Positions 1,841 through 58,765 of a DNA stretch of 64,000 bases are shown here, piece after piece. Position 1 is the first letter of the stretch; every line of letters starts with the position of its first letter. A program made the translations under genes and the position numbers. Source of the DNA: Cordylochernes scorpioides (taxonomy: Eukaryota > Arthropoda > Arachnida > Pseudoscorpiones > Chernetidae); NCBI GenBank assembly GCA_030710605.1, contig CP092880.1, positions 12,379,639 to 12,443,638 of the forward strand, read 5' to 3'. The notes beneath the pieces are model-generated. The model saw only the letters and a list, made by a program, of their open reading frames with translations. It searched no databases and had not been told where the DNA came from.

Positions 1841-2394
1841 TTAAACATTACAATTTAGAAAGGAGGACAGTTTAAAGTGTAATGAGCAGTTCTTGATGTG
1901 ATTGGGGATGTGAAATCAATTTATTTTCCATCTTGTGTGCGCAGCTAACTGACTCAAATTCCCATCACCGTATCCAAGGAAATGAATCCCTCAATAGAAG
2001 ATGCCAATCTATATAGACTGACGACATGATAACAAAGATGTATTTAAGCCACGGGAAGCGAAAATGAAAAGCCATATTGGAAAAACCACTTTAAAAACCT
2101 AAAGTCACGTTTTATCTATTAGAATTGTAATTTTAAACTATTAAAAGATGTTCGAAAAGTCAATGTGCAATCAGAACTAACAAAGAATATATTAAGAAAA
2201 AAGCTATTTCCTGATCGTACAACTAAATTTGCTGATGGTTTGCCCAATCTATCTTAATGAATGTCTACACCGACCCAGCTCTGGTCATCGAGGCGATAAA
2301 GAGGCATGGCCTTTAGGATCTAGTCTAGACTTGAAGTCCAGACATGGGATAAGAGAAAAATAATCTTAATAAATATGGAATGACTGAAGTATTA
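1841..2394. other. Unassigned intergenic sequence
   Basis: No ORF of interest and no repeat shared with the rest of the window that I can see. Confidence 0.4.
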
Positions 2395-2580
2395 GAGCTC
2401 TGAGGTCTGGTGGATTAAATTGGCGAAACCGCTGGGATTCACCACTGATGAGCCAAGCCCTCCCAATATATTTTTTCATCGCAGTAAGGACAGTAGAAGT
2501 TTGTATTGTATATAAAAGAAACATTAGTGCTTTTAAATCCTTTCATTTTATGTATATAGATGGCGCGTAATTGCTTTGTG
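2395..2580 (+). mobile_element. Hh3 element copy, ribozyme-like block damaged
   Basis: Contains the Hh3 strands in plus orientation: GGTC then TGGTGG, TTGGCGAAACCGCT, and CACCACTGATGAGCC. The linker that should form one arm of the extra helix has lost several bases, so the 67-nt block is shortened. It continues into the family's conserved 'GCAGTAAGGACAGTAGAAG' block and the 'GATGGCGCGT' end. See 37069-37135 for the intact motif. Confidence 0.7.
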
Positions 2581-2793
2581 TTAATTATATAGTTAAAAAG
2601 AAAAGTAGCGTTAAAATATATTTGTAATTCTCAGAGATAAAAATGGTGGTAAATTGATGATGTTTGGAATTCTTTGTTCTGTAGACGTTTGATTCAACCT
2701 GGTCAAGTGTAGAGTAAAGATTTCGCCAACTATCAAGTGCTAATACTGTGAAGAGTGTCTTATACACATGTATTAGCAAATTTATTTCTCTTA

Positions 2794-3223: not shown

Positions 3224-4220
3224 ATTAATATATTTATTTGACATATCGGACGCGATATCCCAGCTCGGGATACTTGCGCCTAAATACATTTTAGTAGATT
3301 ATATACAATTAATTTTATACAATTTAATAACCGGACTAAAAACATAATTGAAACTTAAACGATGGTATTCTAAAACAGAAGAGAAAATCTAAAATGGATT
3401 ATTTTAGCAACCTATATACAATTCATTATATACAACTCAATAACCGATTAAAAACACAATTAAAACTGAAACGATGGTTTTCTCAAACAGAAGAGAAAAT
3501 CTAAAATAAATTATTTTAGCAACCTATATACAATTCATTATATACAACTCAATATTCGACTAAAAACACAATTAAAACTGAAACAATGGTTCTCTCAAAC
3601 AGAAGAGAAAATCTAAAATGAACCTACAAAAATTATTGAATTTTACATAAGTGTCTTTGTTATATACAAATTCGCAAATTTCTTCGATGGGATAAAAATG
3701 ACTACTTCTGTAGCTGTGAAATATCGGACATTCTATTAATAAATGTATTGAGTCTTGGTTTTCTTTTCCACAGAAGTAGCTAGGATCATCCGTTGCTCCG
3801 ATTTTCGACAGAAATTCTCCAAAATTACCATGATTTGTGATGAACTGTGAGTTATAAAAATTCGGACGAAAATAAAAAGGAATTCCAAATGGGAAAGATT
3901 TTCGGAATGTTTCATTAGTGTTAGCTATTGTTTCAGCCATTCTTGATTCTATGAAGTTATGAATTATAGTTGGGGCATGCGGTCTAAATAAATCAATTTA
4001 TTCTTTTGATAAATTGGCCAATTCGTATTATATTATCAACGATTCTATATGATCTGTGAGAATAGTTATTTTTGCCAAACTCTGAATACAATTTGATGAG
4101 GTCGTTTTATAGGCTCTCACTACCCAAAGAAGTATCTGATATTGCTGAGAATTTAATCTTTGCTTACTTCTTTTATTAATAAATTTATACCATATTTCAG
4201 ATCCATAGGTTAGTATAGAA
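3224..4220 (-). pseudogene. R1-like LINE copy A, 5' truncated
   Basis: Bounded by a perfect 14-bp duplication, ATATAAGAAATATT, at 3210-3223 and 4221-4234. It aligns with the last third of the intact copy at 4600-7117: a 3' UTR (3224-3571), then the C-terminal coding region with the zinc-finger-like Cys/His segment, broken by stops and small indels upstream of about 3940. Truncation at 4220, just inside the sequence encoding the post-RT region, fits abortive target-primed reverse transcription. The 3' UTR itself contains near-duplicate blocks of about 120 bp. Confidence 0.85.
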
Positions 4221-4599: not shown

Positions 4600-7117
4600 T
4601 CTTTTTATTTATTTATTTTATTTGACATATCGGACGCGATATCCCAGCTCGGGATACTTGCGCCTAAATACATTTTAGTAGATTATATACAATTCATTTT
4701 ATACAATTTAATAACCGGACTAAAAACATAATTAAAACTTAAACGATGGCACTCTAAAACAGAAGAGAAAATCCAAAATGGATTATTTTATCAACCTATA
4801 TACAACTCAATAACCGACTAAAAACACAATTAAAACTGAAACGATGGTTTTCTCAAACAGAAGAGAAAATCCAAAATAAATTATTTTAGCAACCTATATA
4901 CAATTCATTATATACAACTCAATAACCGGTTAAAAACACAATTAAAACTGAAACTATGGTTTTCTTAAACAGAAGAGAAAATCTAAAATGAACTTACAAA
5001 AATTATTGAATTTTACATAAGTGTCTTTGTTATATACAAATTCGCAAACCTCTTCGATGGGATAAAAATGATTACTTCTGTAGCTGTGAAATATCGGACA
5101 TTCCATCAATAAATGTATTGAGTCTTGGTTTTCTTTTCCACAGAAACAGCTAGGATCATCCGTTGCCCCGATTTTCGACAGAAATTCTCCAAAATTACCA
5201 TGACCCGTGACGAACTGTGAGTTATAAAAATTCGGACGAAAATAAAAAGGAATTCCATATGGGAAAAATTTTCTGAATGTTTCATTAGTGTTAGCTATTG
5301 TTTCAGCCATTCTTGATTCTATGTAGTTATGAATTATAGTCGGGGCATGCGGTCTGAATACATTAATTTCTTCTTTTGATAAATTGGCCAAATCGTATTT
5401 TATTATCAACGATTCTATTTGATCTGTGAGAATAGGTATTTTTGCCAAACTATGAATACAATTTGATGAGGTCGTTTTATAGGCTCTCACTACCCAAAGA
5501 AGAATCTGATATTGCTGAGAGTTTAATCTTTGCTTACTTCTTTTATTAATAAATTTATACCATATTTCAGATCCATAGGTTAGTATTGGCCTGAAAAGAG
5601 TTTTATATAAAATTAATCTTTTTTTAGCATCCAATCCCCACATCTTCCCACAGAGTGAAAATAAAAGATTTTTCATACGGTTGATTTTACAAAGAATATC
5701 ATTAATGTGGGGTGTGAAGTTAATTTTTGACTTAATTCTGTGATTAGAAAATTTTATACCTAAAATTTTTACTTCTTCCACTGGTTTTATTATGAAATTT
5801 GGAGTTCCCATTGGAATATTTTGTTTGCCGTGCATATGTATTAAGCCGGTTTTCTCCGGGCTTAGCTTTAGCTTATTTCTTGTACACCATTGTATTACAT
5901 AATTTAAAGTTCTTTCTGTTTCATTTTTTAACCCTTCTATGGTCTTGTGCCAGAAAACAATCGAAACATCATCCGCATAACAGATTATTTCAGAATTTGG
6001 GGATGCGAAGTTGATCAACAAATCATTCAGGACTATATTCCACAATAAAGGTGATAATGGTCCGCCTTGAGGACATCCCTTTGATAAATATTTCGAAATT
6101 GTTGTATTCGAGAAGGTGAGACTTGTTTTTCTTCTCCGATTTAAAAATGATTGGATAATTTTTATAAGAACTGCTGGGACGTGGTCTTCGTCCATTCTTT
6201 TTATTAAGGCAGGCCACCACGCATTATCAAACGCACCACTTATATCAATGGCAATCAATGCAACCAATACGTTTTGTTTGTGTTTCAGTATGGTCTCGGT
6301 TATTTTGTCCAATGCCGTTATTGTAGATTTTCTTTTCGAAAATCCATGTTGTCTATGGCTCAGTAAGTTATTATGATTATAATAATTGAGTATTTTATTT
6401 TTAATGATCGTTTCAAATATTTTTGAGAAATTTGATGTTAGTGAAATTGGGCGATAGCTATTAATTGCTTCGTAGTCAGCTTTTTGCGGTTTCGTAATAA
6501 TTTTTAATACCGAATGTTTCCAGCTTTCAGGATAGTAACCCAGCACCAGACACTCATTAAAGAGTTTGACTAAACTGGGTAGGATTGATAATAATGAGTG
6601 CTTAATCATATAATTACTCACGTTATCTGGACCAGGAGCCTTTCTGATATTAAGATTCGAGCACAAATCCTTTATTTCCTTTTCAGTAATAAAAATGATT
6701 TCCCTGTTGGTAAAACTTGGGATGTGATTTCTAATTAAAGTGTGTTCTTCATTGTCCAACCGCACATCATCATCAGGAAAAAATGCTGTTAGCATTTCCT
6801 TCATCTTTTGCTCTCTCATGCATTCTGTAGTTTTATTCAGTAATGGTATGCCCACTTGAATATCGGCCGTTCTTAACCGTTTAAAAATCCTGTATGCATT
6901 CCCGAAAGCATTCGTAGACTCATTTTCTTCAATAAATATTTTCCACGACGTCTTTTTTGCTCTATTGATGGCTCTTAAGTATTTATTTCTTGCCGCTCTG
7001 TAAATACTCGGATTCAGGTTACCCCCTCTATAATACAAATTCCTGAGATAATGTAAATGTTCTTTTAATTGTTCAAGCTCTTTAAAGCTTTTCGTGTTCC
7101 AAAATGGATTCAGATGC
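4600..7117 (-). mobile_element. R1-like LINE copy B (3' part, including 3' UTR)
   Basis: The 3' UTR (about 4600-4953) ends in an AAAT-type repeat on the minus strand. It contains three diverged copies of a block with 'AACAGAAGAGAAAATC'. The coding region follows upstream to 7117, where an in-frame stop and loss of similarity mark the 5' truncation. The copy is less decayed than copy A, whose 3' UTR begins with the same 'CATATCGGACGCGATATC' block. I found no clear target duplication. Confidence 0.85.
4954..7117 (-). CDS. R1-clade LINE reverse transcriptase, 5' truncated but uninterrupted
   Basis: About 720 codons are open with no frameshift. Numbering from the codon at 7038, residues 1-130 are the linker before the RT. 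The RT domain spans about 135-430: PGPDN at 136, YRPISL at 195, the first catalytic Asp in 'AIDISGAFDNAWW' (265), 'KGCPQGGPLSPLLWN' at 320, and the YADD active site at 354-357. A thumb-like region follows. Residues 631-648 form the C-terminal zinc-finger-like motif (CFC, HLL, CP) common in R1/LOA-type elements. The protein primes cDNA synthesis at a nicked target. The endonuclease domain and ORF1 are absent, so this copy cannot be autonomous, though the RT may have been intact recently. The family is R1-like by motif pattern; insertion here is outside rDNA. Confidence 0.9.
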
Positions 7118-8931: not shown

Positions 8932-8975
8932 CCTAGAGACCATGGTTTCGGGCTAATGGCCCTCGTCAGTCTAGG
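8932..8975 (-). ncRNA. Hammerhead ribozyme, type I, complete (Hh2)
   Basis: Read on the minus strand: stem I CCTAGA; core CTGACGA; stem II GGGC, loop CATTA, GCCC; core GAA; stem III ACC, loop AT, GGT; cleavage nucleotide C (a GUC site); stem I return TCTAGG. All three helices pair perfectly (6, 4 and 3 bp) and every invariant core base is present. It should self-cleave after the C, leaving a new 5' end at TCTAGG. The short stem III resembles hammerheads of Penelope-like elements and retrozymes. Activity is inferred, not shown. Confidence 0.9.
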
Positions 8976-11691: not shown

Positions 11692-11905
11692 AAATATAAT
11701 TTGTCAAAATTCAAAACTATTATAGACGCGTATGATTCTTTTTTAAATTAAACAATTTCTACTGTCCTTACTGCAATGGAAAAATTAATGGTAGGGCCTG
11801 GCTCATCAGTGGTGAACCCTCCCAGCGGTTTCGCCAGTTTAATCTACCATACCGCTGTTATATTGAATTTTTGGAACCTCCTTTTATAGTGATACTGATG
11901 CTAGA
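11692..11905 (-). mobile_element. Hh3 element copy (variant)
   Basis: Begins 'ATAGACGCGTATGATTC', has the conserved 'TTTCTACTGTCCTTACTGC' block, then the 67-nt ribozyme-like block at 11790-11856. It is paired head-to-head with a partial copy at 11997-12150, so the two could fold into one large hairpin. Confidence 0.75.
11790..11856 (-). ncRNA. Permuted hammerhead-like motif, variant with covariation
   Basis: Minus strand: AGCGGT, cleavage nucleotide A, TGGTA; then CTGGC GAA ACCGCT; then CACCA CTGATGA GCCAG. Stem II is CTGGC/GCCAG here against TTGGC/GCCAA in the standard copy, a compensatory U-A to C-G exchange. Stem III is perfect (6 bp). Stem I keeps 4 bp with one outer mismatch. The core is complete, and the extra helix (GGTAGGG/GGGAGGG complement) has one mismatch. 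Confidence 0.65.
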
Positions 11906-11996
11906 CTCTTGGAATGGGTATTTTAGATGAACTATGGACATAATCTTTGAGGACAGCAGAATTACAAAAAATTAAAAATAAATAAAATGCTTAAAA

Positions 11997-12150
11997 CCGC
12001 TGGGAGGGTTAACCACTGATGAGCCAAGCCCTCCCATTAATTATTAAATTGCAGTAAGGACAGTGGAAATTGTTTTATTTCAAAAAGAATCATACGCGTC
12101 TATAATAGCTTTGAATTTTGATAACATATGGCGCACTAATGCAAAATAAT
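11997..12150 (+). mobile_element. Hh3 element fragment, inverted partner
   Basis: Starts inside the motif at 'ACCGCTGGGAGGG', retains ACCACTGATGAGCCAAG and the conserved 'GCAGTAAGGACAGTGGAA' block, and ends in the GCGTCTATAATAG and 'ATGGCGCACTAATGC' terminal sequence. It lacks strand 3 and half of strand 2, so it cannot form the ribozyme alone. Confidence 0.7.
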
Positions 12151-16160: not shown

Positions 16161-16644
16161 TATATATAATATATATAATTATAATGAATATATTATATAT
16201 ATTTATATGAAGTAAACAATTTTAATAACAAAATTTATCACACATAAGGTGAGTGTATCTTGTAGACAGGCCCTAGCAACTCCAAAACCCCCGCCTTCCG
16301 TGCATTCTAGCCATTTTTTTTGCATCAAGCATTTGATTGGTTGGTTGAAATTGCCACGTGACCCCATAACGTGTTCCGTATCTAATTACTACTAGTACTT
16401 CAGCATACTAATCACTAGAGTTCAATTTCCTAAAAGCTATGTATGTAGTAAGGTTAGCTAGCGTTTAGAACAGGCCACTTAAGTCCTGGATTGAGAGCAT
16501 GCGTCACTGTGATTACTTCTATGTAATCATACTAAATTGACTTATTATTGAATTTTAGAGAAAGTTTTACAAGGTTGTCTCACAAAAGTTTGTAAACACT
16601 TGCAAAAAAAATTTTGAAATTCTAATATTATTCTCCGTTATAAT

Positions 16645-16771
16645 ATGATGCACTAACCCGCCATCTGATATCAAAATTCGAAACTATTATAGACGCGTAT
16701 GATTCTTTTTTAAAATAAACAATTTCTACTGTCCTTACTGTAATGGAAAAATTAATTGGAGGGCCTGGCTC
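16645..16771 (-). mobile_element. Hh3 element fragment
   Basis: Terminal and conserved blocks ('ATTATAGACGCGTATGATTC', 'CTACTGTCCTTACTG') are present, but the copy stops inside the ribozyme block after 'GGGCCTGGCTC'. Confidence 0.7.
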
Positions 16772-16783
16772 CGTTATATATAA

Positions 16784-24383: not shown

Positions 24384-27251
24384 TTATTTGTCTTGTAGAT
24401 CATCTGGCATCCTTTTACATGGACTGATTGTATATGTTGGGGTTGTTTTACTTTGTCTTGTATGTCATCTGACATCCTTCTACATGGACTGATTGTATAT
24501 GTTGGGGTTGTTTTACTTTGTCTTGTATGTCATCTGACATCCTTCTACATGGACTGATTGTATATGTTGGGGTTGTTTTACTTTGTCTTGTATGTCATCT
24601 GACATCCTTCTACATGGACTGATTGTATATGTTGGGGTTGTTTTACTTTGTCTTGTATGTCATCTGACATCCTTCTACATGGACTGATTGTATATGTTGG
24701 GGTTGTTTTACCTTGTCTTGTATGTCATCTGTTTTCCTTCTACATGGACTGATTGTATATGTTGGGGTGGTTTTACGTTGTCTTGTATGTCATCTGACAT
24801 CCTTCTACATGGACTGATTGTATATGTTGGGGTTGTTTTACTTTGTCTTGTATGTCATCTGACATCCTTCTACATGGACTGATTGTATATGTTGGGGTTG
24901 TTTTACTTTGTCTTGTATGTCATCTGACATCCTTCTACATGGACTGATTGTATATGTTGGGGTTGTTTTACTTTGTCTTGTATGTCATCTGACATCCTTC
25001 TACATGGACTGATTGAATATGTTGGGGTTGTTTTACTTTGTCTTGTATGTCATCTGACATCTTTCTACTTGGACTGATTGAATATGTTGGGGTTGTTTTA
25101 CTTTGTCTTGTATGTCATCTGACATCCTTCTACATGGACTGATTGAATATGTTGGGGTTGTTTTACTTTGTCTTGTATGTCATCTGACATCCTTCTACAT
25201 GGACTGATTGTATATGTTGGGGTTGTTTTACTTTGTCTTGTATGTCATCTGACATCCTTCTACATGGACTGATTGTATATGTTGGGGTTGTTTTACTTTG
25301 TCTTGTATGTCATCTGACATCCTTCTACATGGACTGATTGAATATGTTGGGGTTGTTTTACTTTGTCTTGTATGTCATCTGACATCTTTCTACTTGGACT
25401 GATTGAATATGTTGGGGTTGTTTTACCTTGTCTTGTATGTCATCTGACATCCTTCTACATGGACTGATTGTATATGTTGGGTTGTTTTACCTTGTCTTGT
25501 ATGTCATCTGACATCCTTCTACATGGACTGATTGAATATGTTGGGGTTGTTTTACTTTGTCTTGTATGTCATCTGACATCCTTCTACATGGACTGATTGT
25601 ATATGTTGGGGTTGTTTTACTTTGTCTTGTATGTCATCTGACATCTTTCTACTTGGACTGATTGAATATGTTGGGGTTGTTTTACTTTGTCTTGTATGTC
25701 ATCTGACATCTTTCTACTTGGACTGATTGAATATGTTGGGGTTGTTTTACTTTATCTTGTATGTCATCTGACATCTTTCTACTTGGACTGATTGTATATG
25801 TTGGGGTTGTTTTACTTTGTCTTGTATGTCATCTGACATCCTTCTACATGGACTGATTGAATATGTTGGGGTTGTTTTACTTTGTCTTGTATGTCATCTG
25901 ACATCCTTCTACATGGACTGATTGTATATGTTGGGGTTGTTTTACTTTGTCTTGTATGTCATCTGACATCCATCTACATGGACTGATTGTATATGTTGGG
26001 GTTGTTTTACTTTGTCTTGTATGTCATCTGACATCCTTCTACATGGACTGATTGTATATGTTGGGGTTGTTTTACTTTGTCTTGTATGTCATCTGACATC
26101 CTTCTACATGGACTTATTGTATATGTTGGGGTTGTTTTACTTTGTCTTGTATGTCATCTGACATCCTTCTACATGGACTGATTGTATATGTTGGGGTTGT
26201 TTTACTTTGTCTTGTATGTCATCTGACATCCTTCTACATGGACTGATTGTATATGTTGGGGTTGTTTTACTTTGTCTTGTATGTCATCTGTTTTCCTTCT
26301 ACATGGACTGATTGTATATGTTGGGGTTGTTTTACTTTGTCTTGTATGTCATCTGACATCCTTCTACATGGACTGATTGTATATGTTGGGGTTGTTTTAC
26401 TTTGTCTTGTATGTCATCTGACATCCTTCTACATGGACTGATTGAATATGTTGGGGTTGTTTTACTTTGTCTTGTATGTCATCTGTTTTCCTTCTACATG
26501 GACTGATTGTATATGTTGGGGTTGTTTTACCTTGTCTTGTATGTCATCTGACATCCTTCTACATGGACTGATTGTATATGTTGGGGTTGTTTTACCTTGT
26601 CTTGTATGTCATCTGACATCCTTCTACATGGACTGATTGTATATGTTGGGGTTGTTTTACCTTGTCTTGTATGTCATCTGACATCCTTCTACATGGACTG
26701 ATTGTATATGTTGGGGTTGTTTTACCTTGTCTTGTATGTCATCTGACATCCTTCTACATGGACTGATTGTATATGTTGGGGTTGTTTTACCTTGTCTTGT
26801 ATGTCATCTGACATACTTCTACATGGACTGATTATATATGTTGGGGTTGTTTTACCTTGTCTTGTATGTCATCTGACATCCTTCTACATGGACTGATTGT
26901 ATATGTTGGGGTTGTTTTACCTTGTCTTGTATGTCATCTGACATCCTTCTACATGGACTGATTGTATATGTTGGGGTTGTTTTACTTTGTCTTGTATGTC
27001 ATCTGACATCCTTCTACATGGACTGATTGTATATGTTGGGGTTGTTTTACTTTGTCTTGTATGTCATCTGACATCCATCTATATGGACTGATTGTATATG
27101 TTGGGGTTGTTTTACTTTGTCTTGTATGTCATCTGACATCCTTCTACATGGACTGATTGTATATGTTGGGGTTGTTTTACCTTGTCTTGTATGTCATCTG
27201 ACATCCTTCTACATGGACTGATTGTATATGTTGGGGTTGTTTTACTTTGTC
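24384..27251 (+). repeat. Minisatellite, 65-bp unit, about 44 copies
   Basis: Unit 'TACATGGACTGATTGTATAT', then 'GTTGGGGTTGTTTTAC', 'TTTGTCTTGTATGTCATCTG', 'ACATCCTTC'. Variants (TTTTCC for ACATCC; GAATATG; CTTGTC versus TTTGTC) recur in blocks, suggesting segmental amplification. One unit near 25480 lacks a G. The unit length is not a multiple of three, so the 64-codon frames that recur every 195 bp are artefacts. Confidence 0.95.
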
Positions 27252-34373: not shown

Positions 34374-34440
34374 AGCGGTATGATAGATTAAACTGGCCAA
34401 ACCGTTGGGAGGGTTTATCAATGATAAGCCAAGCCCTCCC
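34374..34440 (+). ncRNA. Permuted hammerhead-like motif, stems covary, core lost
   Basis: Stem I is TGATA/TATCA against TGGTG/CACCA in the standard copy: two complete compensatory base-pair changes. Stem III stays paired (AGCGGT with ACCGTT, one G-U pair) and the extra GGGAGGG helix is intact. The core has changed (ATGATAA; CAA in place of GAA), so cleavage is not expected. Pairing outlived, or changed before, the catalytic core. Confidence 0.6.
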
Positions 34441-34540
34441 ATTATTTTACCATTGCAGTAAGGGCAGTAGAAAATTGATTCATTTTGAAAATAAAAAACA
34501 TGCGCGACAAATATAGTTGTATTTTCTTATAAAAATAAAA
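34374..34540 (+). mobile_element. Hh3 element, diverged copy
   Basis: The 67-nt block (34374-34440) aligns without gaps to the standard block despite many substitutions. 'TTGCAGTAAGGGCAGTAGAA' follows. Confidence 0.75.
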
Positions 34541-36227: not shown

Positions 36228-36984
36228 AGTTATTCAAATTTATATTTTAGAGCAAACTTGTACCATATGCTTTTTCGAATTTTGTTCGTGGTATATTATT
36301 GATAAGTTTCTTTTATAGGGTGACGATTAATAGTGAAAGTTAATTTATAAGAAATTGCACTTTATATTTAGATATCTTTAAAAGAAAAATAATAGATACG
36401 AAATTTTATACTACTATAATTATTTTATTATTTCACAATTCTTGTACACATACACATTATAAACAAAGCCTTTAATAATGCTGATATACATTCAATTATC
36501 TCAAATCAAAACGGAGTAAAGTGATAATATAATATATAACTGATATATTATCTTAAACAAAACAGATCAGATCAATTGTCACGGCAGAGAAGATATAAAT
36601 ATTCTAAAAGTATAAGTTAAAAAACATTCTATTAATAAAATCTATAGAATGCAAAAAAAACGTGATAATATATTTACAAGTGATAATTATTTATTAAGTT
36701 GACAGCCAGTAGGTTCAGGGAGCCACGTACAGAAGTCACCAACTACCCTCTTCTTGGTTTTATCTACAATGTCAGTGGAATTACTGAGGTGGGCAGATTT
36801 ATTTCTTGGGATATTTTCTAGGGATGTTGTACTTAGGTTGGTGATCTCTAGGAGGGTGGCCATCAGGAATCTTTGGTATTGGAAGGTTGGGCAGAGAGGT
36901 GAAGTGGTCCATGGTTTGGTCTACAAGAGATAATCTACAAGAATTGTAAGGGATAGTGACGTAGCTAAATATTTTAGTTAATAT
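35840..36984. other. Unassigned AT-rich sequence with a (GA)n tract
   Basis: (GA)n microsatellite at about 36188-36222; otherwise no feature apart from short AT repeats. Confidence 0.45.
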
Positions 36985-37300
36985 AAAATGAAAGGATTTA
37001 AAAGCACGAATGTTTCTTTTATACATAATACAAACTTCTACTGTCCTTACTGCGATGAAAAATATATTGGGAGGGCTTGGCTCATCAGTGGTGAACCCTC
37101 CTAGCGGTTTCGCCAATTTAATCCACCAGACCGCTTCTCAGAGCTCTAATACTGGACAATTCTGCTCATATACGCAGCACTGAAGGGTGGAATCTCAGAA
37201 ATGGGTTTCAAGAAGACTATGGACATAAGCTTATAGGACAATAGAATTACATTCAAATATTTGCATCGAGCAATGCTCTTCCGCAAACAATAAATACAAT
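36985..37300 (-). mobile_element. Hh3 element, near-complete
   Basis: Runs from 'AAATGAAAGGATTTAAAAG' through 'CTTCTACTGTCCTTACTGCG', the intact 67-nt block, 'CAGAGCTCTAATACTG', 'ACTATGGACATAAGC' and 'TTGCATCGAGCAATGC'. The full unit is about 340 bp. Confidence 0.8.
37069..37135 (-). ncRNA. Permuted (reverse-order) hammerhead-like ribozyme motif, intact
   Basis: Minus-strand order: strand 3, AGCGGT then C then TGGTG; 7-nt linker GATTAAA; strand 2, TTGGC then GAA then ACCGCT; helix strand GGAGGG; strand 1, CACCA then CTGATGA then GCCAA; helix strand CCCTCC. Hammerhead pairing is complete: stem I CACCA/TGGTG, stem II GCCAA/TTGGC, stem III ACCGCT/AGCGGT, with all core bases and a GUC site. But the strands follow 3-2-1 instead of 1-2-3, so stems I and II are joined at their far ends and the fold is a pseudoknot with an extra helix. 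Catalysis is inferred only. Confidence 0.65.
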
Positions 37301-40627: not shown

Positions 40628-40669
40628 ATCAAAGGAACTCGATAAAATAACGTAAACATAAAGTAATTC

Positions 40670-41030
40670 ATATAAAATGGAAGGATTTAAAAGTACGAAT
40701 GTTTCTTTTATACATAATACAAACTTCTACTGCCCTTACTGCGATGAAAAAATATATTGGGAGTGGTGAACCCTCCCAGCGGTTTCGTCAATTTAATCCA
40801 CCAGACCGCTTCTCAGAGCTCTAATACTGTATTGGACGATTCTGCATATATACGCAGCACTGAAGGGTGGAATCACAGAAATGGTTTTCAAGAAAACTAT
40901 GGACATAAGCTTATAGGACAGTAGAATTACATTCAAATATTTGCATCGAGCGCAATGCTCTTCCTCAAACAATAAAGACAAGGTCAGTTAGCATAAATTA
41001 ACACAAAGCAATAACGCGCCATCTCTCTCT
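40670..41030 (-). mobile_element. Hh3 element with the ribozyme block deleted in part
   Basis: All landmarks of the family to the 'AACGCGCCATCT' end, but strand 1 is removed (GGGAG joins TGGTGAACC). The U6 copy follows at its end. Confidence 0.75.
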
Positions 41031-41040
41031 CTCTCTCGCT

Positions 41041-41137
41041 ACACGCTTGTTCGGCGGTACATATACTAAAATAGGAACGATACAGAGAAGATTAGCATGG
41101 CCCCTGCGCAAGGATGACACGCAAAATCGTGAAGCGT

Positions 41138-41139
<2 letters not shown>
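41041..41139 (+). pseudogene. U6: U6 snRNA retropseudogene
   Basis: 'CGGTACATATACTAAAAT', 'GATACAGAGAAGATTAGC', 'CCTGCGCAAGGATGACACGC' and 'TCGTGAAGCGTTC' match the nearly invariant spliceosomal U6 RNA. It is flanked on both sides by CT repeats, probably a target duplication of a (CT)n tract, and has no upstream U6 promoter elements. It ends before the oligo-U tail. A retrocopy, not a working gene. Confidence 0.85.
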
Positions 41140-41144
<5 letters not shown>

Positions 41145-41173
<29 letters not shown>

Positions 41174-41814
41174 ATGAAAGGATATATGTATAGATGGCGC
41201 GTTATTGCTTTGTGATAAAGTAATACGTGTAAAATCCAGAATAAAACTACTGAAATAACATAGTACGTTCTGTAGATTTCAATATATTCCATACGTAGAG
41301 CTTAAAACCGTATAACTGCCGTATCAACAGTTTAGTGATGACTTTGGACACTAGGGGCGAGTTTATTGTTTGAGCAAACTCCAGGTGAATTCAACGGGAG
41401 TCAACATTTAGATGGGGAATAAGTGAAAAAAACATTGTTTTTCTTTTCAATACACTTTAAAATATATTGATGTCGTTGTGTTTGGTGTTTCTTTTAACAG
41501 CTTTCTTTTAGTGTCCACTAAACAGTTTATATATATAGATAGAAAATTGTATTTGTCCTGTGTGTGTTTTTTAAATTTATATTTTCTGCAAGTTCATTCG
41601 TGGTATTTATAACTCATATAGAGCATTTAGAAAATAGAGTGATAGTATGACATATATTTGAAATATGTTAGGAATATGACCCAAGTACAATTCCAGATTT
41701 GCCTCGCTCTCTCCCGAGTACATTTTACTAACTTTACGTAGAATAAAAACTTGTTCTTTTTATTCTATTGTTGTGTATGTTTGTTTTTGCGTGAGTGTGC
41801 GTGTGAAAATAAAA
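41145..41814. other. Unassigned sequence
   Basis: Begins with a CT/AT microsatellite and an Hh3 end fragment (to about 41220); nothing else recognised. Confidence 0.4.
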
Positions 41815-42330
41815 TAAATCAAAAAGGTCAGGTGTTGATATTAAAACCAAAAGAGACATACCCCAAACGCTCACATGAACATTTTAAAAAGCAGAGCGCC
41901 ATCTAGTGGAACAAAAATCAACTAAATATTAAATTCAGGCTTATACTATATTTGACCAACCCACTTCTTACACGCTTGTTCGGCGGTACATGTGCTAAAA
42001 TTGGAGCGATACAGAGAGGATTAGCGTGGCCCCTGCGCAAGGATGACACGCGGTATCGTGAAGCGTTCCAACCCACTTCTTGATGAATCAAGAAAAGCCG
42101 ACCACGAACGCGTTTCGGGCTGTTGGCCCACGTCAGCGTAGTGCATGCTGCTCACATGAACAGCGTATTTATACAAATTTGACCTTAAATGCCTATTTTT
42201 GATTTCTGAAGAAGCCTCTTGGATCAATATTTTGACGTTGAGATATATATGGAACAAAATTAAATTAACGTTTAGTTGATTTTTGTTCCACTAGATGGTG
42301 CTCAGCCATGTGAGCGCTCAGGATATATCT
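41815..42330. mobile_element. Hh1 foldback element interrupted by a U6 copy
   Basis: The left half (41815-41969) has 'AGAGCGCCATCTAGTGG'. The right half resumes at 42070 with the hammerhead (42101-42142, minus) and ends with an inverted end copy ('TCCACTAGATGGTGCTC'). The ribozyme has perfect stem II, but CTGACGA is CTGACGT, so it should be inactive. Confidence 0.8.
41970..42069 (+). pseudogene. U6: U6 snRNA retropseudogene with 12-bp target duplication
   Basis: AACCCACTTCTT at 41958-41969 and 42070-42081 is exact. The U6 sequence is full length to GCGTTCC with several substitutions (for example GCGTGG in place of GCATGG). It shows LINE-mediated retrotransposition of a pol III RNA into an Hh1 element. 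Confidence 0.92.
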
Positions 42331-42859: not shown

Positions 42860-43190
42860 AAGAAATGGAAACATTGACGCACGAATGTTTCTTTTTAAAT
42901 ATAAAACAAACTTCTACTCTCCTTACTGCAATGAAAAAATATTGGGAGGGCTTGGCTCAACAAGGGTGAACCCTCCCAGCGGTTTCGCCAATTTAATCCA
43001 CCAGACCGCTTTTTAGAGCTCTAATACTGTATTGGACGGTTCTACTTATATATGCTACAATGAAGGGTGGAATCTCAGAAATGGTATTTAAGAAAACTAT
43101 GGATATAAGCAGAATTACATATAAATATTTGCATCTGTCAATGCTCTTCAGTAAACAATAAGGACAAGACCAGTTAGGCATACTTAATTA
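42860..43190 (-). mobile_element. Hh3 element, ribozyme core mutated
   Basis: Family landmarks are complete; strands 2 and 3 are intact, but strand 1 reads TTGTTGA in place of CTGATGA and stem I has a mismatch. Confidence 0.78.
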
Positions 43191-43324: not shown

Positions 43325-44125
43325 TCCTTCTCGACTTCAGATTCCCTGAAGAATATTTTAACCATGTAATATGTAGAATTAATTATGAATAGTTTGAATC
43401 ATTATCGAGTGTGTATCATATGCCTATTTTTAGATTGGCATAAAGCCAACCTTTCAAAGTAAATCATAGTATATTTTCATGAAATATAAAACATTGAATT
43501 AATACTTTGCTGTACGCTGGTATAAAGATTGATGTTCTGCAAATCGAATTATTAATTATAAATATATAAATACGTTTTAAGATTGATCAATATATTTGTA
43601 TTTTTTATTATAAAAATTTTAGAATAATTTCCATGCAATATATCTCAAAATATACAGTAAATAAAACATTAAATCATGAATGTTTATTTTATACATAAAA
43701 CGAACTTCTACTGTCCTTACTGTGATGAAAAAGGATATTTTGAGATATCTCAAAATACGCAAGTTTCATGTTTATGAATTAAGGTGTTTTTCGTAAATAA
43801 TAAATAAATTCCCTTTTTAATATTAAAAATAAATTTTCAACTACACGTTGACAAAGGCAAAAACTCTAATAAAATATATATTTTTATAAATTTATAGTTA
43901 TTTAAATAATTTTATCAACATATTATACCACGAAAAAATGCCAACATTTCAATTTATTCTTTCTTGTAAAAAATCAAGTCATAAAGCGTATTAAATATGG
44001 TCATATATTTGTCTTATTCTTTATTCTATCTGTGAAAACTTTAAGTATTCTCCGAAAGAGCTTAAAATAAAGCAAACTTTAGTGTCTTCATAAAACTATG
44101 TTTTATTTGTGTTTCGATTTGGTAG
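43325..44125. other. AT-rich sequence with a small Hh3 fragment
   Basis: 43675-43740 holds the Hh3 block 'CTTCTACTGTCCTTACTG' without the ribozyme; otherwise nothing recognised. Confidence 0.45.
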
Positions 44126-44127
44126 AT

Positions 44128-44315
44128 CAATTAATCCACCAGACCGCTCCTCAGAGCTCTAATACTGTATTGGACGATTCTGCTTATATACGCAGCACTG
44201 AAGGGTGGAATCTCAGAAATGGTTCTCAAGAAAACTATGGACATAAGCTTATAGGACAGTAGAATTACATTCAAATATTTGCTTCGAGCAATGCTCTTCC
44301 GCAAACAAAAGACAT
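44128..44315 (-). mobile_element. Hh3 fragment, ribozyme-distal half
   Basis: Begins at 'TTAATCCACCAGACCGC' (strand 3) and runs to 'GCAATGCTCTTCCGCAAAC'; strands 1 and 2 are absent. Confidence 0.75.
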
Positions 44316-44959: not shown

Positions 44960-45075
44960 CAGAATAGTCCAATGATATATGAGAGGTTGAATAAACTGGC
45001 GAACCTGCTGGGAAAGTGAACCTCTGATGATTCAGGCTTCTTTAAAGACAGAAGGAGAAATTTATTTATTCAAAA
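44960..45075 (+). mobile_element. Hh3 element, highly diverged copy
   Basis: From 44981 to 45040 it aligns base for base with the standard block. Stem I is AGGTT/AACCT (two compensatory pairs). Stem II's outer pair changed from T-A to C-G, and two pairs of the extra helix changed from G-C to A-T. CTGATGA and CGAA are kept, but stem III and the cleavage site are lost. Confidence 0.6.
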
Positions 45076-48370: not shown

Positions 48371-48655
48371 ACATATAAAATGAAAGGATTTAAAAGCACG
48401 AATGTTTCTTTTATACATAATACAAACTTCTTTTGCCCTTACTGCGATGAAAAAATATATTGGGAGGGCTTGGCTCATCAGTGGTGAACCCTCCCAGCGG
48501 TTTCGCCAATTTAATCCACCAGACCGCTTCTCAGAGCTCTAATACTGTATTGGACGATTCTGCTTATATACGCAGCACTGAAGGATGAAATCTCAGAAGT
48601 GGTTTTCAAGAAAACTATGGACATAAGCTTATAGGAATTCGTGCTTTTAAATCCT
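48371..48655 (-). mobile_element. Hh3 element with intact ribozyme-like block
   Basis: Standard landmarks. The right end joins an inverted second copy at 'GGAATTCGTGCTTTTAAATC'. Confidence 0.8.
48462..48528 (-). ncRNA. Permuted hammerhead-like motif, intact
   Basis: All three strands, core bases, GUC site and the GGGAGGG/CCCTCCC helix are present with perfect pairing; same 67-nt length as at 37069. Confidence 0.65.
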
Positions 48656-48985
48656 TTCATTTTATATGTATAGATGGCGCGTTATTGCTTTGTGTTAATT
48701 TATGCCTAACTGGCCTTGTCTTTATTATTTGCGGAAGAGTATTGCTCGATGCAAATATTTAAATGTAATTCTACTGTCCTATAAGCTTATGTCCATAGTT
48801 TTCTTGAAAACCATTTCTGAGATTCCATCCTTCAGTGCTGCGCATATAAGCAGAATATATTTTTCCATCGCAGTAAGGGCAGTAGAAGTTTGTATTATGT
48901 ATAAAAGAAACATTCGCGCTTTTATATCCTTTCATTTTATATGTATAGATGGCGCGTTATTGCTTTGTGTTAATATATATATACA
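48656..48985 (+). mobile_element. Hh3 element lacking the ribozyme block
   Basis: Runs from the 'GATGGCGCGTTATTGC' end through all landmarks, but the sequence jumps from 'ATAAGCAGAA' to 'TATATTTTTCCATCGCAG', removing about 120 bp that include the whole 67-nt block. It forms an inverted pair with 48371-48655. The second 'GATGGCGCGTTATTGC' at its right end shows a head-to-tail unit joint. Confidence 0.75.
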
Positions 48986-48987
48986 TA

Positions 48988-49252
48988 TGTGGCGACTACA
49001 CTTTGCTTCAGCGAGCCGAACTAAGACGGCATCGGTGGGCGTCAACACTTCACTACGCATGCGCGTGGGACGTCATCAGAGACGCTGGCGACTTAGCGGT
49101 AAACAACAAGGCTAGTGCAGCGGCCGTTATCTCAACCGTTGCTTCTTTTCTCTTTATAATTTCTTGCTTTAAATAAATTAATTTTAATTATAATTTTATC
49201 AGCAGCCTTTCCACAAGCCACACCAACACAGCACATCAACAACCATCCTACA
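48988..49252 (+). mobile_element. Solo LTR
   Basis: Starts TGTGGCGACTACAC, ends AACCATCCTACA (TG...CA), and is flanked by the 4-bp duplication CATA (48984-48987; 49253-49256). It has a GC-rich first half and AATAAA near 49172. A 4-bp duplication suits Gypsy-type elements. It lies at the end of an Hh3 copy. Confidence 0.65.
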
Positions 49253-54454: not shown

Positions 54455-54790
54455 TACACATGTTAACACAAAGCAATAAGAGCATTGCTCGAAGCAAATA
54501 TTTGAATGTAATTCTACTGTCCTATAAGCTTATGTCCATAGTTTAGTTGAAAACCATTTCTAAGATACCATCCTTCAGTGCAGCATATAAAAGCAGAATG
54601 ATCCAATACAGTATTAGAGCTCTGAGAAGCGGTCTGGTGGATTAAATTGGCGAAACCACTGGGAGGGTTCACCACTGATGAGCCAAGCCCTCCCAATATA
54701 TTTTTTCATCGCAGTAAGGACAGTAGAAGTTCGTTTTATGTATAAAAGAAACATTCGCGCTTTTAAATCTTTTATTCTATATGTACACAT
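54455..54790 (+). mobile_element. Hh3 element, near-complete
   Basis: From 'AACACAAAGCAATAAGAGC' to 'GCGCTTTTAAATC' with the ribozyme-like block at 54628-54694. Confidence 0.8.
54628..54694 (+). ncRNA. Permuted hammerhead-like motif, one stem III mismatch
   Basis: Same as 37069-37135, except strand 2 ends ACCACT, giving one mismatch against AGCGGT. Core, stems I and II and the extra helix are intact. Confidence 0.6.
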
Positions 54791-54904
54791 GTACTCCAAA
54801 TGAATCTAAAAATAAAATTCAGATTGCTTCTCGAATATCGATGGCATTAATATTATTACAACTGTCCTAGTGTGGAATTAACACCTACCCACATATTCTC
54901 ATGC

Positions 54905-55919: not shown

Positions 55920-55990
55920 CGTTTGATTTCTATCATTGCAGTGAGGGCAGTAGAAAATTGTATTACTTCAAAAAGAAACACACGCGATAA
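55920..55990 (+). mobile_element. Hh3 fragment
   Basis: Only the conserved block 'TTGCAGTGAGGGCAGTAG' and the ACACGCG end. Confidence 0.55.
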
Positions 55991-57969: not shown

Positions 57970-58160
57970 CATATGATATTCAAAACTATTATAGACGCGT
58001 AATGATTCTTATACAAATTAAAAGAAATTCACCACTGATGAGCCAGGCCCTCCTAATAATTTTTCCATTGCAGTAAGGACAGTAGAAATTGTTTAATCTG
58101 AAAAAGAATCATACCCGTTAATAATAGTTTCGAATTTGCATAACAGATGACGCGCTAATG
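57970..58160 (+). mobile_element. Hh3 element, internally deleted
   Basis: Terminal 'ATTATAGACGCG', then a jump into strand 1 (TTCACCACTGATGAGCCAGG) and the other half. Strands 2 and 3 are missing. The GCCAGG form matches the 11790 variant. Confidence 0.7.
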
Positions 58161-58164
58161 CATC

Positions 58165-58765
58165 ATGACATATGATATTGATAAATTTTTACCAAATTTT
58201 TCTTATCATATAAGAAAATATCAACCTTCAATAGAAAGCAATCGCTAGCTACCCACCATTCTTATCATGGTATGTACCATGCGTATTTGAGATAAGTAAA
58301 AATAGACACCTATTATCTTCTCTCGTGTCTACTGCGGAGTTATTTTCTTGGAAATTTGTTGAGATTGAAACAAATATATTTTAATTGAGAAAAGGACAGT
58401 TAAAGTTTACTTGATTTGACAATAAATCGCGCTTAATAGTATTATTTTAGATATATAGATGACGCGTTGTTGCTTCATAAAAAGTTTTTTAAAAATCTTT
58501 CAGGTCACAGCGGTGATCGCCACTCAGTGAGGTGATCAGACGAGTCTGTCACTAAGGGAGGTTTTGCTGTAAGTTGTCGATAAGAAGTCTAAGGTCAGGA
58601 GTTGCTGCTATCGTTGTTGCATCACCAATTTCCTTATTAGAAGGGGGAGGGTATCTCCAGACCGCGCTGTTTACAGGGCGGCTGGCGTCGTCTTGTCCGA
58701 TCAGTCGCGGATCTTAGATAGCTCGATGGTGTGGAGTGAGGTGCCTGGGAGACCTAGCCATGTCT
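58165..58765. other. Unassigned sequence with SINE and MITE scraps
   Basis: 58235-58303 is a decayed S1 3' end ('GCTAGCTACCCACCATTC'). 58530-58575 has a pogo-like terminal sequence. 58560-58765 is GC-richer and unassigned. Confidence 0.4.

What the first reader, a model, noticed from the sequence alone, without database searches (positions are those of the whole stretch)
37069..37135. A hammerhead whose three strands are joined in reverse cyclic order (Hh3)
Hammerheads have three core strands: I-CTGANGA-II, II'-GAA-III, and III'-H-I'. Natural types I-III are circular permut­ations of the order 1-2-3. In Hh3 the order is 3-2-1, yet all core bases, a GUC site and three helices of 5, 5 and 6 bp are present. 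Stems I and II are bridged at their far ends by GATTAAA, and strand 1 is held in the loop of a GGGAGGG/CCCTCCC helix. The block is 67 nt in five copies (11790, 34374, 37069, 48462, 54628). Tandem repetition of the unit cannot restore the ordinary order. If active, this is a new topology for the motif.
Basis: partly seen in the sequence, partly recalled or inferred. Interest (0 to 1): 0.95.

Follow-up and report, generated by a model that had tools for sequence, protein, structure and literature searches.

The report
Reversed-order hammerhead ribozyme in a retroelement
A repeated DNA element in an animal-like genome carries what looks like a self-cutting RNA (a hammerhead ribozyme) whose three strands run in a reversed order; this order was already known from environmental RNA, but here it sits inside a small mobile-looking genomic element.

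Summary
On the minus strand of 37069-37135 all hammerhead core bases, a GUC site and stems I (5 bp), II (5 bp) and III (6 bp) are present in the order site - GAAA - CUGANGA, and the block recurs in the window. Chance is a poor explanation: 0 of 374,627 shuffles of the block gave a hammerhead in any order.

The topology is not new. Eckert et al. 2023 (PMC10085705) described and tested it as the type-SGC hammerhead, with a short stem I-II linker and a fourth stem tying I and II. Both are present here.

What looks new is the setting. That paper reports no type-SGC in genomes of known organisms. Here it lies in a 373-nt, 39% GC, dispersed element in eukaryotic DNA, with a head-to-tail junction in two copies, 5'-truncated copies and a 12-bp helix bracketing the ribozyme. 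In four older copies the ribozyme is the best-kept part, and three stem pairs show double changes. I read it as a retrozyme-like retroelement using a type-SGC instead of a type I hammerhead. Cleavage, circular RNA and mobilisation are inferred; host unknown.

The parts
37069..37135 (-). type-SGC-like hammerhead ribozyme, 67 nt
   Evidence: architecture matches the four-stem type-SGC of PMC10085705
37129..37135 (-). block S, first part: stem III 5' strand AGCGGT (37135-37130) and site base C (37129); predicted cleavage between 37129 and 37128
37124..37128 (-). block S, second part: stem I strand TGGTG following the cleavage site
37117..37123 (-). linker GATTAAA joining stem I to stem II
   Evidence: invariant in the 8 aligned copies
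37103..37116 (-). block G: stem II TTGGC (37116-37112), GAA (37111-37109), stem III 3' strand ACCGCT (37108-37103)
37096..37102 (-). 5' strand of the stem tying stems I and II (AGGAGGG in this copy)
   Evidence: joined to stem III with no intervening nucleotide
37077..37093 (-). block C: stem I CACCA (37093-37089), CTGATGA (37088-37082), stem II GCCAA (37081-37077)
37069..37075 (-). 3' strand of the tying stem, CCCTCCC
36981..37299 (-). retrozyme-like element copy holding this ribozyme (unit positions 18-342 of 373)
37235..37246 (-). 5' arm of the 12-bp helix bracketing the ribozyme
37036..37047 (-). 3' arm of the bracketing helix, inside the motif GCAGTAAGGRCAGTAGAA
48368..48636 (-). element copy with the best ribozyme (48462-48528): core and all four stems complete
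48637..48978 (+). head-to-tail element copy (unit 312-373, then 1-158 and 254-373 and a few bases more); ribozyme deleted
40666..41024 (-). element copy running from unit 347 through the junction to 346; block C deleted
54478..54791 (+). element copy; ribozyme 54628-54694, core intact, one C.A in stem III
42879..43182 (-). element copy; ribozyme 42944-43010 with broken CUGANGA
11727..11966 (-). older copy; ribozyme 11790-11856 with intact core
34374..34506 (+). old decayed copy: core broken, stem I kept through two double changes
2388..2586 (+). 5'-truncated copy; core intact, deletions in stem III and the tying stem
11994..12142 (+). older copy whose match begins inside the ribozyme (unit 212)
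58028..58112 (+). older copy whose match begins inside the ribozyme (unit 227)
16650..16771 (-). older copy whose match begins inside the ribozyme (unit 239); a 10-nt direct repeat (16633-16642, 16769-16778) flanks it
44131..44314 (-). copy ending inside the ribozyme (unit 19-204)
43678..43739 (-). piece of the element 3' of the ribozyme (unit 254-315)
55934..55986 (+). piece of the element 3' of the ribozyme (unit 266-318)
44985..45030 (+). very divergent piece of the ribozyme region (unit 195-240)

Best explanation
The block is a type-SGC hammerhead ribozyme encoded in a 373-nt non-autonomous, retrozyme-like retroelement. Proposed cycle: RNA of the ribozyme strand is made from head-to-tail copies. 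The two outer hairpins (stem III and the tying stem) fold first, and their loops then pair as stems I and II, which builds the hammerhead core with stems I and II held side by side by the GATTAAA linker and the tying stem. The RNA cuts itself after the C of GUC (between 37129 and 37128), giving unit-length RNA that a host ligase could close into a circle. A reverse transcriptase supplied in trans copies it back into DNA, giving tandem and 5'-truncated copies. Shown: sequence anatomy, match with the published architecture, conservation, limited covariation, dispersal, head-to-tail junction. Inferred: cleavage, transcription, circularisation, and mobilisation by a Penelope-like or LINE-type enzyme.
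For: Core and stems in SGC order; four stems, short I-II linker and direct joining of stem III to the tying stem match the published type-SGC. Chance tests; 0 of 374,627; random flanks give a tying stem >=7 bp within 2 nt in 0.8-1.0%. Descriptor control on 121 IMG/VR loci, 1.07 Mb: 36 matches, 31 in the type II order, 1 in SGC order, which shares strands with a type II match and has no tying stem. Conservation: in four older copies the ribozyme is 141/150 identical to the young unit against 222/299 in 5' part plus tail, Fisher p 1e-7; with the decayed copy 34374 added 198/217 against 243/327, p 4e-7. In copy 11790 the five ribozyme differences spare the invariant core: an allowed C-to-A at the site, a compensated stem II pair, one stem I and one tying-stem mismatch. 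Pair count over 8 copies: 95.3% of cells paired, 3 pairs with double change, 4 of 500 shuffles as high, slid controls 0-1. Tandem junction and truncations. 12-bp bracketing helix in 5 of the 6 copies that hold both arms (8 examined), its variants being G.U on the ribozyme strand. The minimum-energy fold of the 48462 67-mer is the two-hairpin scaffold, z -2.46.
Against: No cleavage data. 3 of the 8 aligned copies lack an intact core, and only 48462 is complete in core and all four stems. Double changes come from two older copies, one of which (34374) has a broken core; 'further pair types' are no better than in shuffles (500 of 500). The stretch just after the ribozyme is also well kept: the ribozyme exceeds it at p 0.02 in four copies and p 0.08 with 34374 added. 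The lone 67-mer of copy 11790 is predicted to fold otherwise than the tying stem requires (z -1.23). In the closed 373-nt unit stem III has pairing probability of about 0.1. No relative outside the window was found (the 20-nt match is taken as chance), and the host genome could not be searched. A target-site duplication above its shuffle limit was seen in 1 of 12 copies. The 3' end is not sharp: matches end at unit 313-319 (6 copies), 342-351 (4) or 363-378 (4).
Confidence: 0.75

Rival explanations
1. The block is a conserved structured RNA of the element (for example a binding site for the reverse transcriptase); its likeness to the hammerhead is partly accidental and it does not cut.
For: Two adjacent hairpins with complementary loops and high conservation would also fit; the neighbouring stretch is conserved nearly as well.
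Against: It does not explain why every invariant hammerhead base is present and spared in copy 11790, nor the match with the published four-stem type-SGC.
Confidence: 0.14
2. The ribozyme works as an ordinary hammerhead only across two tandem units (for example GAAA of unit 1 with site and CUGANGA of unit 2).
For: Head-to-tail copies exist and a dimer contains the strands in cyclic order (by inspection).
Against: The partners would be more than 300 nt apart, while the local 67 nt hold all partners plus a tying stem that has a known place in the local SGC fold.
Confidence: 0.05
3. Chance resemblance within a repeat.
For: The copies count as one independent event; a large scan will meet rare coincidences; 3 non-cyclic matches with all stems >=5 bp in 3358 simulated windows.
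Against: 0 of 374,627 shuffles; the tying stem adds a factor of about 0.01; preferential conservation.
Confidence: 0.05
4. A tRNA-type SINE read on the plus strand, with the block as an A/B-box promoter.
For: TTGGCTCATCAGTGG and GGTTTCGCC on the plus strand loosely recall A and B boxes (recalled consensus, by eye, not scored).
Against: The spacing looks too short (recalled), ARAGORN, in bacterial mode, sees no tRNA there; truncation mostly removes the side 5' of the ribozyme strand, and variants of the bracketing helix pair only on the ribozyme strand.
Confidence: 0.02

Closest known systems
Type-SGC hammerhead ribozyme (HRIMA-1 motif and variants; Eckert et al. 2023, PMC10085705)
   Same: Strand order, core bases, stems I-III, short I-II linker, fourth stem tying I and II, direct joining of stem III and that stem as reported for a few members; 67 nt.
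   Different: The paper reports no type-SGC in genomes of known organisms and calls almost all its motifs exclusive to metatranscriptomes (the exceptions it names are type CSG and HRIMA-5); here it is in eukaryotic DNA in a dispersed element. The linker is 7 nt here, typically 3 there. Sequences could not be compared (supplement not available).
Metazoan retrozymes (Cervera and de la Pena 2020, PMC7229834)
   Same: Short (150-450 bp there, 373 here) low-GC repeat with a hammerhead and head-to-tail copies.
   Different: They carry type I hammerheads; this one carries type SGC. Long tandem arrays were not seen here and circular RNA could not be tested.
Penelope-like elements with hammerheads (mentioned in PMC7229834)
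   Same: Hammerhead plus tandem arrangement; 5' truncation (recalled).
   Different: The 373-nt unit is too short for their reverse transcriptase (inference).
Rfam Hammerhead_II (RF02276)
   Same: Best Rfam match of the 48462 block, through shared core strands.
   Different: 12.2 bits against a cut-off of 37: below membership.

Membership tests
type-SGC hammerhead ribozyme | blocks in order site, GAAA, CUGANGA with the conserved core bases | tested here: met
   intact in 5 of 8 aligned copies
type-SGC hammerhead ribozyme | stems I, II, III, plus a stem tying the other sides of I and II | tested here: met
   complete in 48462, one outer pair short in 37069
type-SGC hammerhead ribozyme | covariation in the stems | tested here: inconclusive
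   3 pairs with double change in 8 related copies; too few distant relatives
type-SGC hammerhead ribozyme | self-cleavage at the predicted site, lost in the CUGANGA G mutant | not testable with these tools
   needs in vitro transcription
metazoan retrozyme | short repeat of 150-450 bp, GC below 50% | tested here: met
   373 nt, GC 0.386
metazoan retrozyme | no coding capacity, no LTR | tested here: inconclusive
   ORFs of 112 aa (36799-37137) and 138 aa (48699-49115) overlap two copies; only the second was scanned, no Pfam family; LTR features were not searched for
metazoan retrozyme | tandem copies | tested here: inconclusive
   head-to-tail junction in two copies; no long array of it listed
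metazoan retrozyme | type I hammerhead | tested here: not met
   order is SGC; no ordinary-order match in the element
metazoan retrozyme | target-site duplications longer than 4 bp, when present | tested here: inconclusive
   1 of 12 copies (16650-16771, 10 nt) above its shuffle limit; 79 of 20,000 random flank pairs outside tandem repeats share 10 nt, 991 of 20,000 draws with repeats included
metazoan retrozyme | expression as linear and circular RNA | not testable with these tools
   no RNA data
type I, II or III hammerhead | cyclic order of the three strands within the motif | tested here: not met

The most novel reading that the evidence does not exclude
A family of animal retroelements runs on a non-circularly permuted (type-SGC) hammerhead: the first genomic, mobile home for a ribozyme known from environmental RNA, implying that the metatranscriptomic type-SGC RNAs and an animal retroelement share a ribozyme by descent or by convergence.
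Probability: 0.6. Interest if true: 0.8.

Novelty: new variant of a known kind. Interest (0 to 1): 0.66.

Why it matters
If the RNA cuts, a reversed-order hammerhead is not confined to unplaced environmental RNAs but is carried as DNA by a dispersed element in a eukaryote. That gives a genomic source of copies with which to study how such permuted ribozymes arise, how they co-vary and whether they make circular RNAs, and it would extend the retrozyme idea to a non-circularly permuted hammerhead.

Tried and rejected
Rfam: no match to the block at gathering score in the whole window; at E<=10, SNORD74 at 17 bits and Hammerhead_II at 12.2 bits, both below their cut-offs of 41 and 37. Patterns of the block in IMG/VR and in the prokaryote collection gave no match; the one hit of the 18-nt motif matches the unit over 20 nt only and is taken as chance. 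A match in ordinary order at 8969 is an artefact of the second scanner, which sets no minimum loop; the first scanner does not list it. tRNA-SINE reading rejected. A first try to locate the bracketing helix used too loose a pattern and misplaced the 5' arm in most copies; corrected. In one search the unit was printed but the BLAST step failed; rerun. A TATA-like box starts 32-42 nt upstream of the ribozyme in 7 of 9 copies examined (TATAWAA in 6, TATATAT in 1; absent in 37069 and 2400): suggestive only.

Rows dropped: from the pair count, the copies at 11985, 58010, 44975, 16750 and 44110 (slices), which lack half of the block or are too divergent; from the 16 copies counted, three short tail pieces (41159-41186, 41183-41218, 58444-58475); from the Fisher tests, copy 34374 (added), the young copies, and all gap columns. 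Positions in related copies are not independent, so these p values are rough. Pfam was run on 7 of the 40 ORFs.

Papers: PMC10085705, parts 1-6 of 8 of the whole text (figures and supplements not seen); PMC7229834, outline, abstract and sections 13 and 17; all others only as search listings and abstract starts. Among the papers none but PMC10085705 holds 'type-SGC' or uses HRIMA for ribozymes; two searches were read as listings only. The library is open-licence PMC.

Full report
What is there. The 67-nt block at 37069-37135 reads as a hammerhead on the minus strand. In ribozyme-strand order: stem III strand AGCGGT and site C; stem I strand TGGTG; linker GATTAAA; stem II strand TTGGC; GAA; stem III strand ACCGCT; AGGAGGG (GGGAGGG in copy 48462); TT; stem I strand CACCA; CTGATGA; stem II strand GCCAA; G; CCCTCCC. 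Every conserved hammerhead base is present, with the A15.1-U16.1 and G10.1-C11.1 pairs (numbering recalled).

Is it chance? A scan of both strands in all six orders, with full core and stems of at least 4 bp, found only three copies of this element in the window (other copies fall out through one broken pair or deletion). In 3358 first-order Markov windows there were 131 matches in any order at 4 bp and 7 with all stems at least 5 bp, 3 of these in the three non-cyclic orders; that scanner sets no minimum loop and so overcounts. None of 374,627 dinucleotide shuffles of the block matched in any order. Random flanks supply a tying stem of at least 7 bp within 2 nt in 0.8-1.0% of cases. The one SGC match shares its strands with a type II match and lacks the tying stem. 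So the descriptor finds what look like real hammerheads, and SGC is rare in background.

Known topology. Eckert et al. 2023 (PMC10085705) name six possible orders of blocks S, G and C, and show that type SGC exists in nature: 583 predicted members, five tested that cleave, and a need for four stems shown in one of them by breaking and restoring each. They describe a short linker from stem I to stem II, a stem joining the other sides of I and II, and in a few members a direct joining of that stem to stem III. All are seen here. [quoted passage not shown] Searches of the open PMC library showed me no later paper with type SGC in a genome; two searches were seen as listings only, and subscription papers and preprints were not searched.

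The element. The block is part of a dispersed repeat. A mapping unit stitched from two window copies is 373 nt, GC 0.386, with the ribozyme at 187-253 and the predicted cut after 193. BLAST finds 16 copies or pieces, not counting three short tail pieces. Fourteen of the 16 reach into or past the stretch just 3' of the ribozyme; 44131-44314 and 44985-45030 do not. Six begin only at unit 169-266 (2388, 11994, 16650, 43678, 55934, 58028), as expected of 5' truncation if the ribozyme strand is the sense strand; the match of 34374 also begins at 187, but a TATA-like box upstream of it suggests that its diverged 5' part goes on. Two copies read through a head-to-tail junction, and 48637-48978 goes round from unit 312 past the junction twice, although its ribozyme is deleted. 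Copy 40666-41024 runs from unit 347 through the junction to 346, one full circumference, which is what one round on a circular template would leave, but it may be coincidence. Matches end at unit 313-319 in 6 copies, 342-351 in 4 and 363-378 in 4, so the 3' end is not sharp; some of the first class may be divergence rather than an end.

RNA-level constraint. In four older copies (11727, 11994, 16650, 58028) the ribozyme is 141/150 identical to the young unit, the stretch just after it 120/141, and the 5' part plus tail 222/299. Ribozyme against 5' part plus tail gives p = 1e-7, and against the stretch just after it p = 0.02. With the decayed copy 34374 added, 198/217 against 243/327 (p = 4e-7) and against 150/176 (p = 0.08). 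Gap columns are left out and copies are related, so these are rough. In copy 11790 the five differences in the ribozyme spare the invariant core: the site base is C to A (allowed), the outer stem II pair changes on both sides, one stem I pair and one tying-stem pair are lost. Copy 34374 has lost three core bases yet keeps stem I through two double changes; copy 42944 has a broken CUGANGA. Over 8 copies 95.3% of pair cells are standard, 3 pairs change on both sides against 0-1 in slid controls, and 4 of 500 shuffles reach that count, while 'further pair types' are no better than in shuffles. This is support, not proof.

Bracketing helix. The unit has a 12-bp helix between a 5' arm and the motif GCAGTAAGGRCAGTAGAA, which brackets the ribozyme. 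Of 8 copies examined, 6 hold both arms; it forms in full in 5 of these (36981, 40666, 48637, 54478, 11727). The variants in four of them are G.U pairs on the ribozyme strand (three distinct sites), which would be A.C on the other strand; the sixth, 42879, has a deletion in the 5' arm.

How it most likely works. The two hairpins, stem III and the tying stem, are the minimum-energy fold of the 48462 and 37069 67-mers (z -2.46 and -2.12) and of 34374 (z -3.34); for 11790 (z -1.23) the second hairpin is predicted otherwise. Pairing of the two loops makes stems I and II and so the type-SGC core. In tandem transcripts cleavage would free unit-length RNA that could be ligated to circles and copied by a reverse transcriptase in trans, as proposed for metazoan retrozymes (PMC7229834). 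The window holds a reverse transcriptase ORF (4954-7116, RVT_1) and two mariner-type transposase ORFs (Transposase_1) (7 of 40 ORFs scanned), but nothing found ties them to this element. In the closed-circle fold of the unit stem III is mostly out-competed (pairing probability about 0.1), which speaks against easy cleavage of the circle, or for protection of it once closed.

Verdict. The structure is real, and the topology is published. The genomic setting, a retrozyme-like element with a type-SGC instead of a type I hammerhead in what is probably an invertebrate animal (inferred from U6 sequences, mariners and the reverse transcriptase; species unknown), looks unreported in what I could search. 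Activity remains to be tested.

Noticed in passing
41043-41148 and 41972-42077 (+): Two U6 snRNA-like sequences (96 and 77 bits). The first is flanked by CT repeats and by pieces of the element's tail (element to 41024; 41159-41218), suggesting a chimeric insertion.
   Followed up: partly
window, 14 sites such as 37036-37053 (-): Motif GCAGTAAGGRCAGTAGAA, 14 matches with up to 3 mismatches against 0.08 expected; it holds an arm of the helix bracketing the ribozyme.
   Followed up: yes
12 sites, e.g. 2558, 15881, 27835, 41896, 63826: AGATGGCGC occurs 12 times against 0.18 expected in base shuffles, partly in the element's tail and partly in another repeat with CCACTAGATGGCGCTCTGC, which resembles the CTCF site (recalled).
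   Followed up: no
24387-27251: Satellite-like array of a 65-bp unit, 44 copies, 97% matches.
   Followed up: no
3300-3622 and 4684-4992, beside 4954-7116 (-): A 112-bp tandem repeat occurs twice on the 3' side of a 720-aa reverse transcriptase ORF.
   Followed up: no
L027, L085, L058 (IMG/VR contigs): Arrays of hammerhead matches in the type II order: 9, 5 and 4 per locus.
   Followed up: no
16633-16642 and 16769-16778: 10-nt direct repeat flanking a 5'-truncated copy, a possible target-site duplication.
   Followed up: partly
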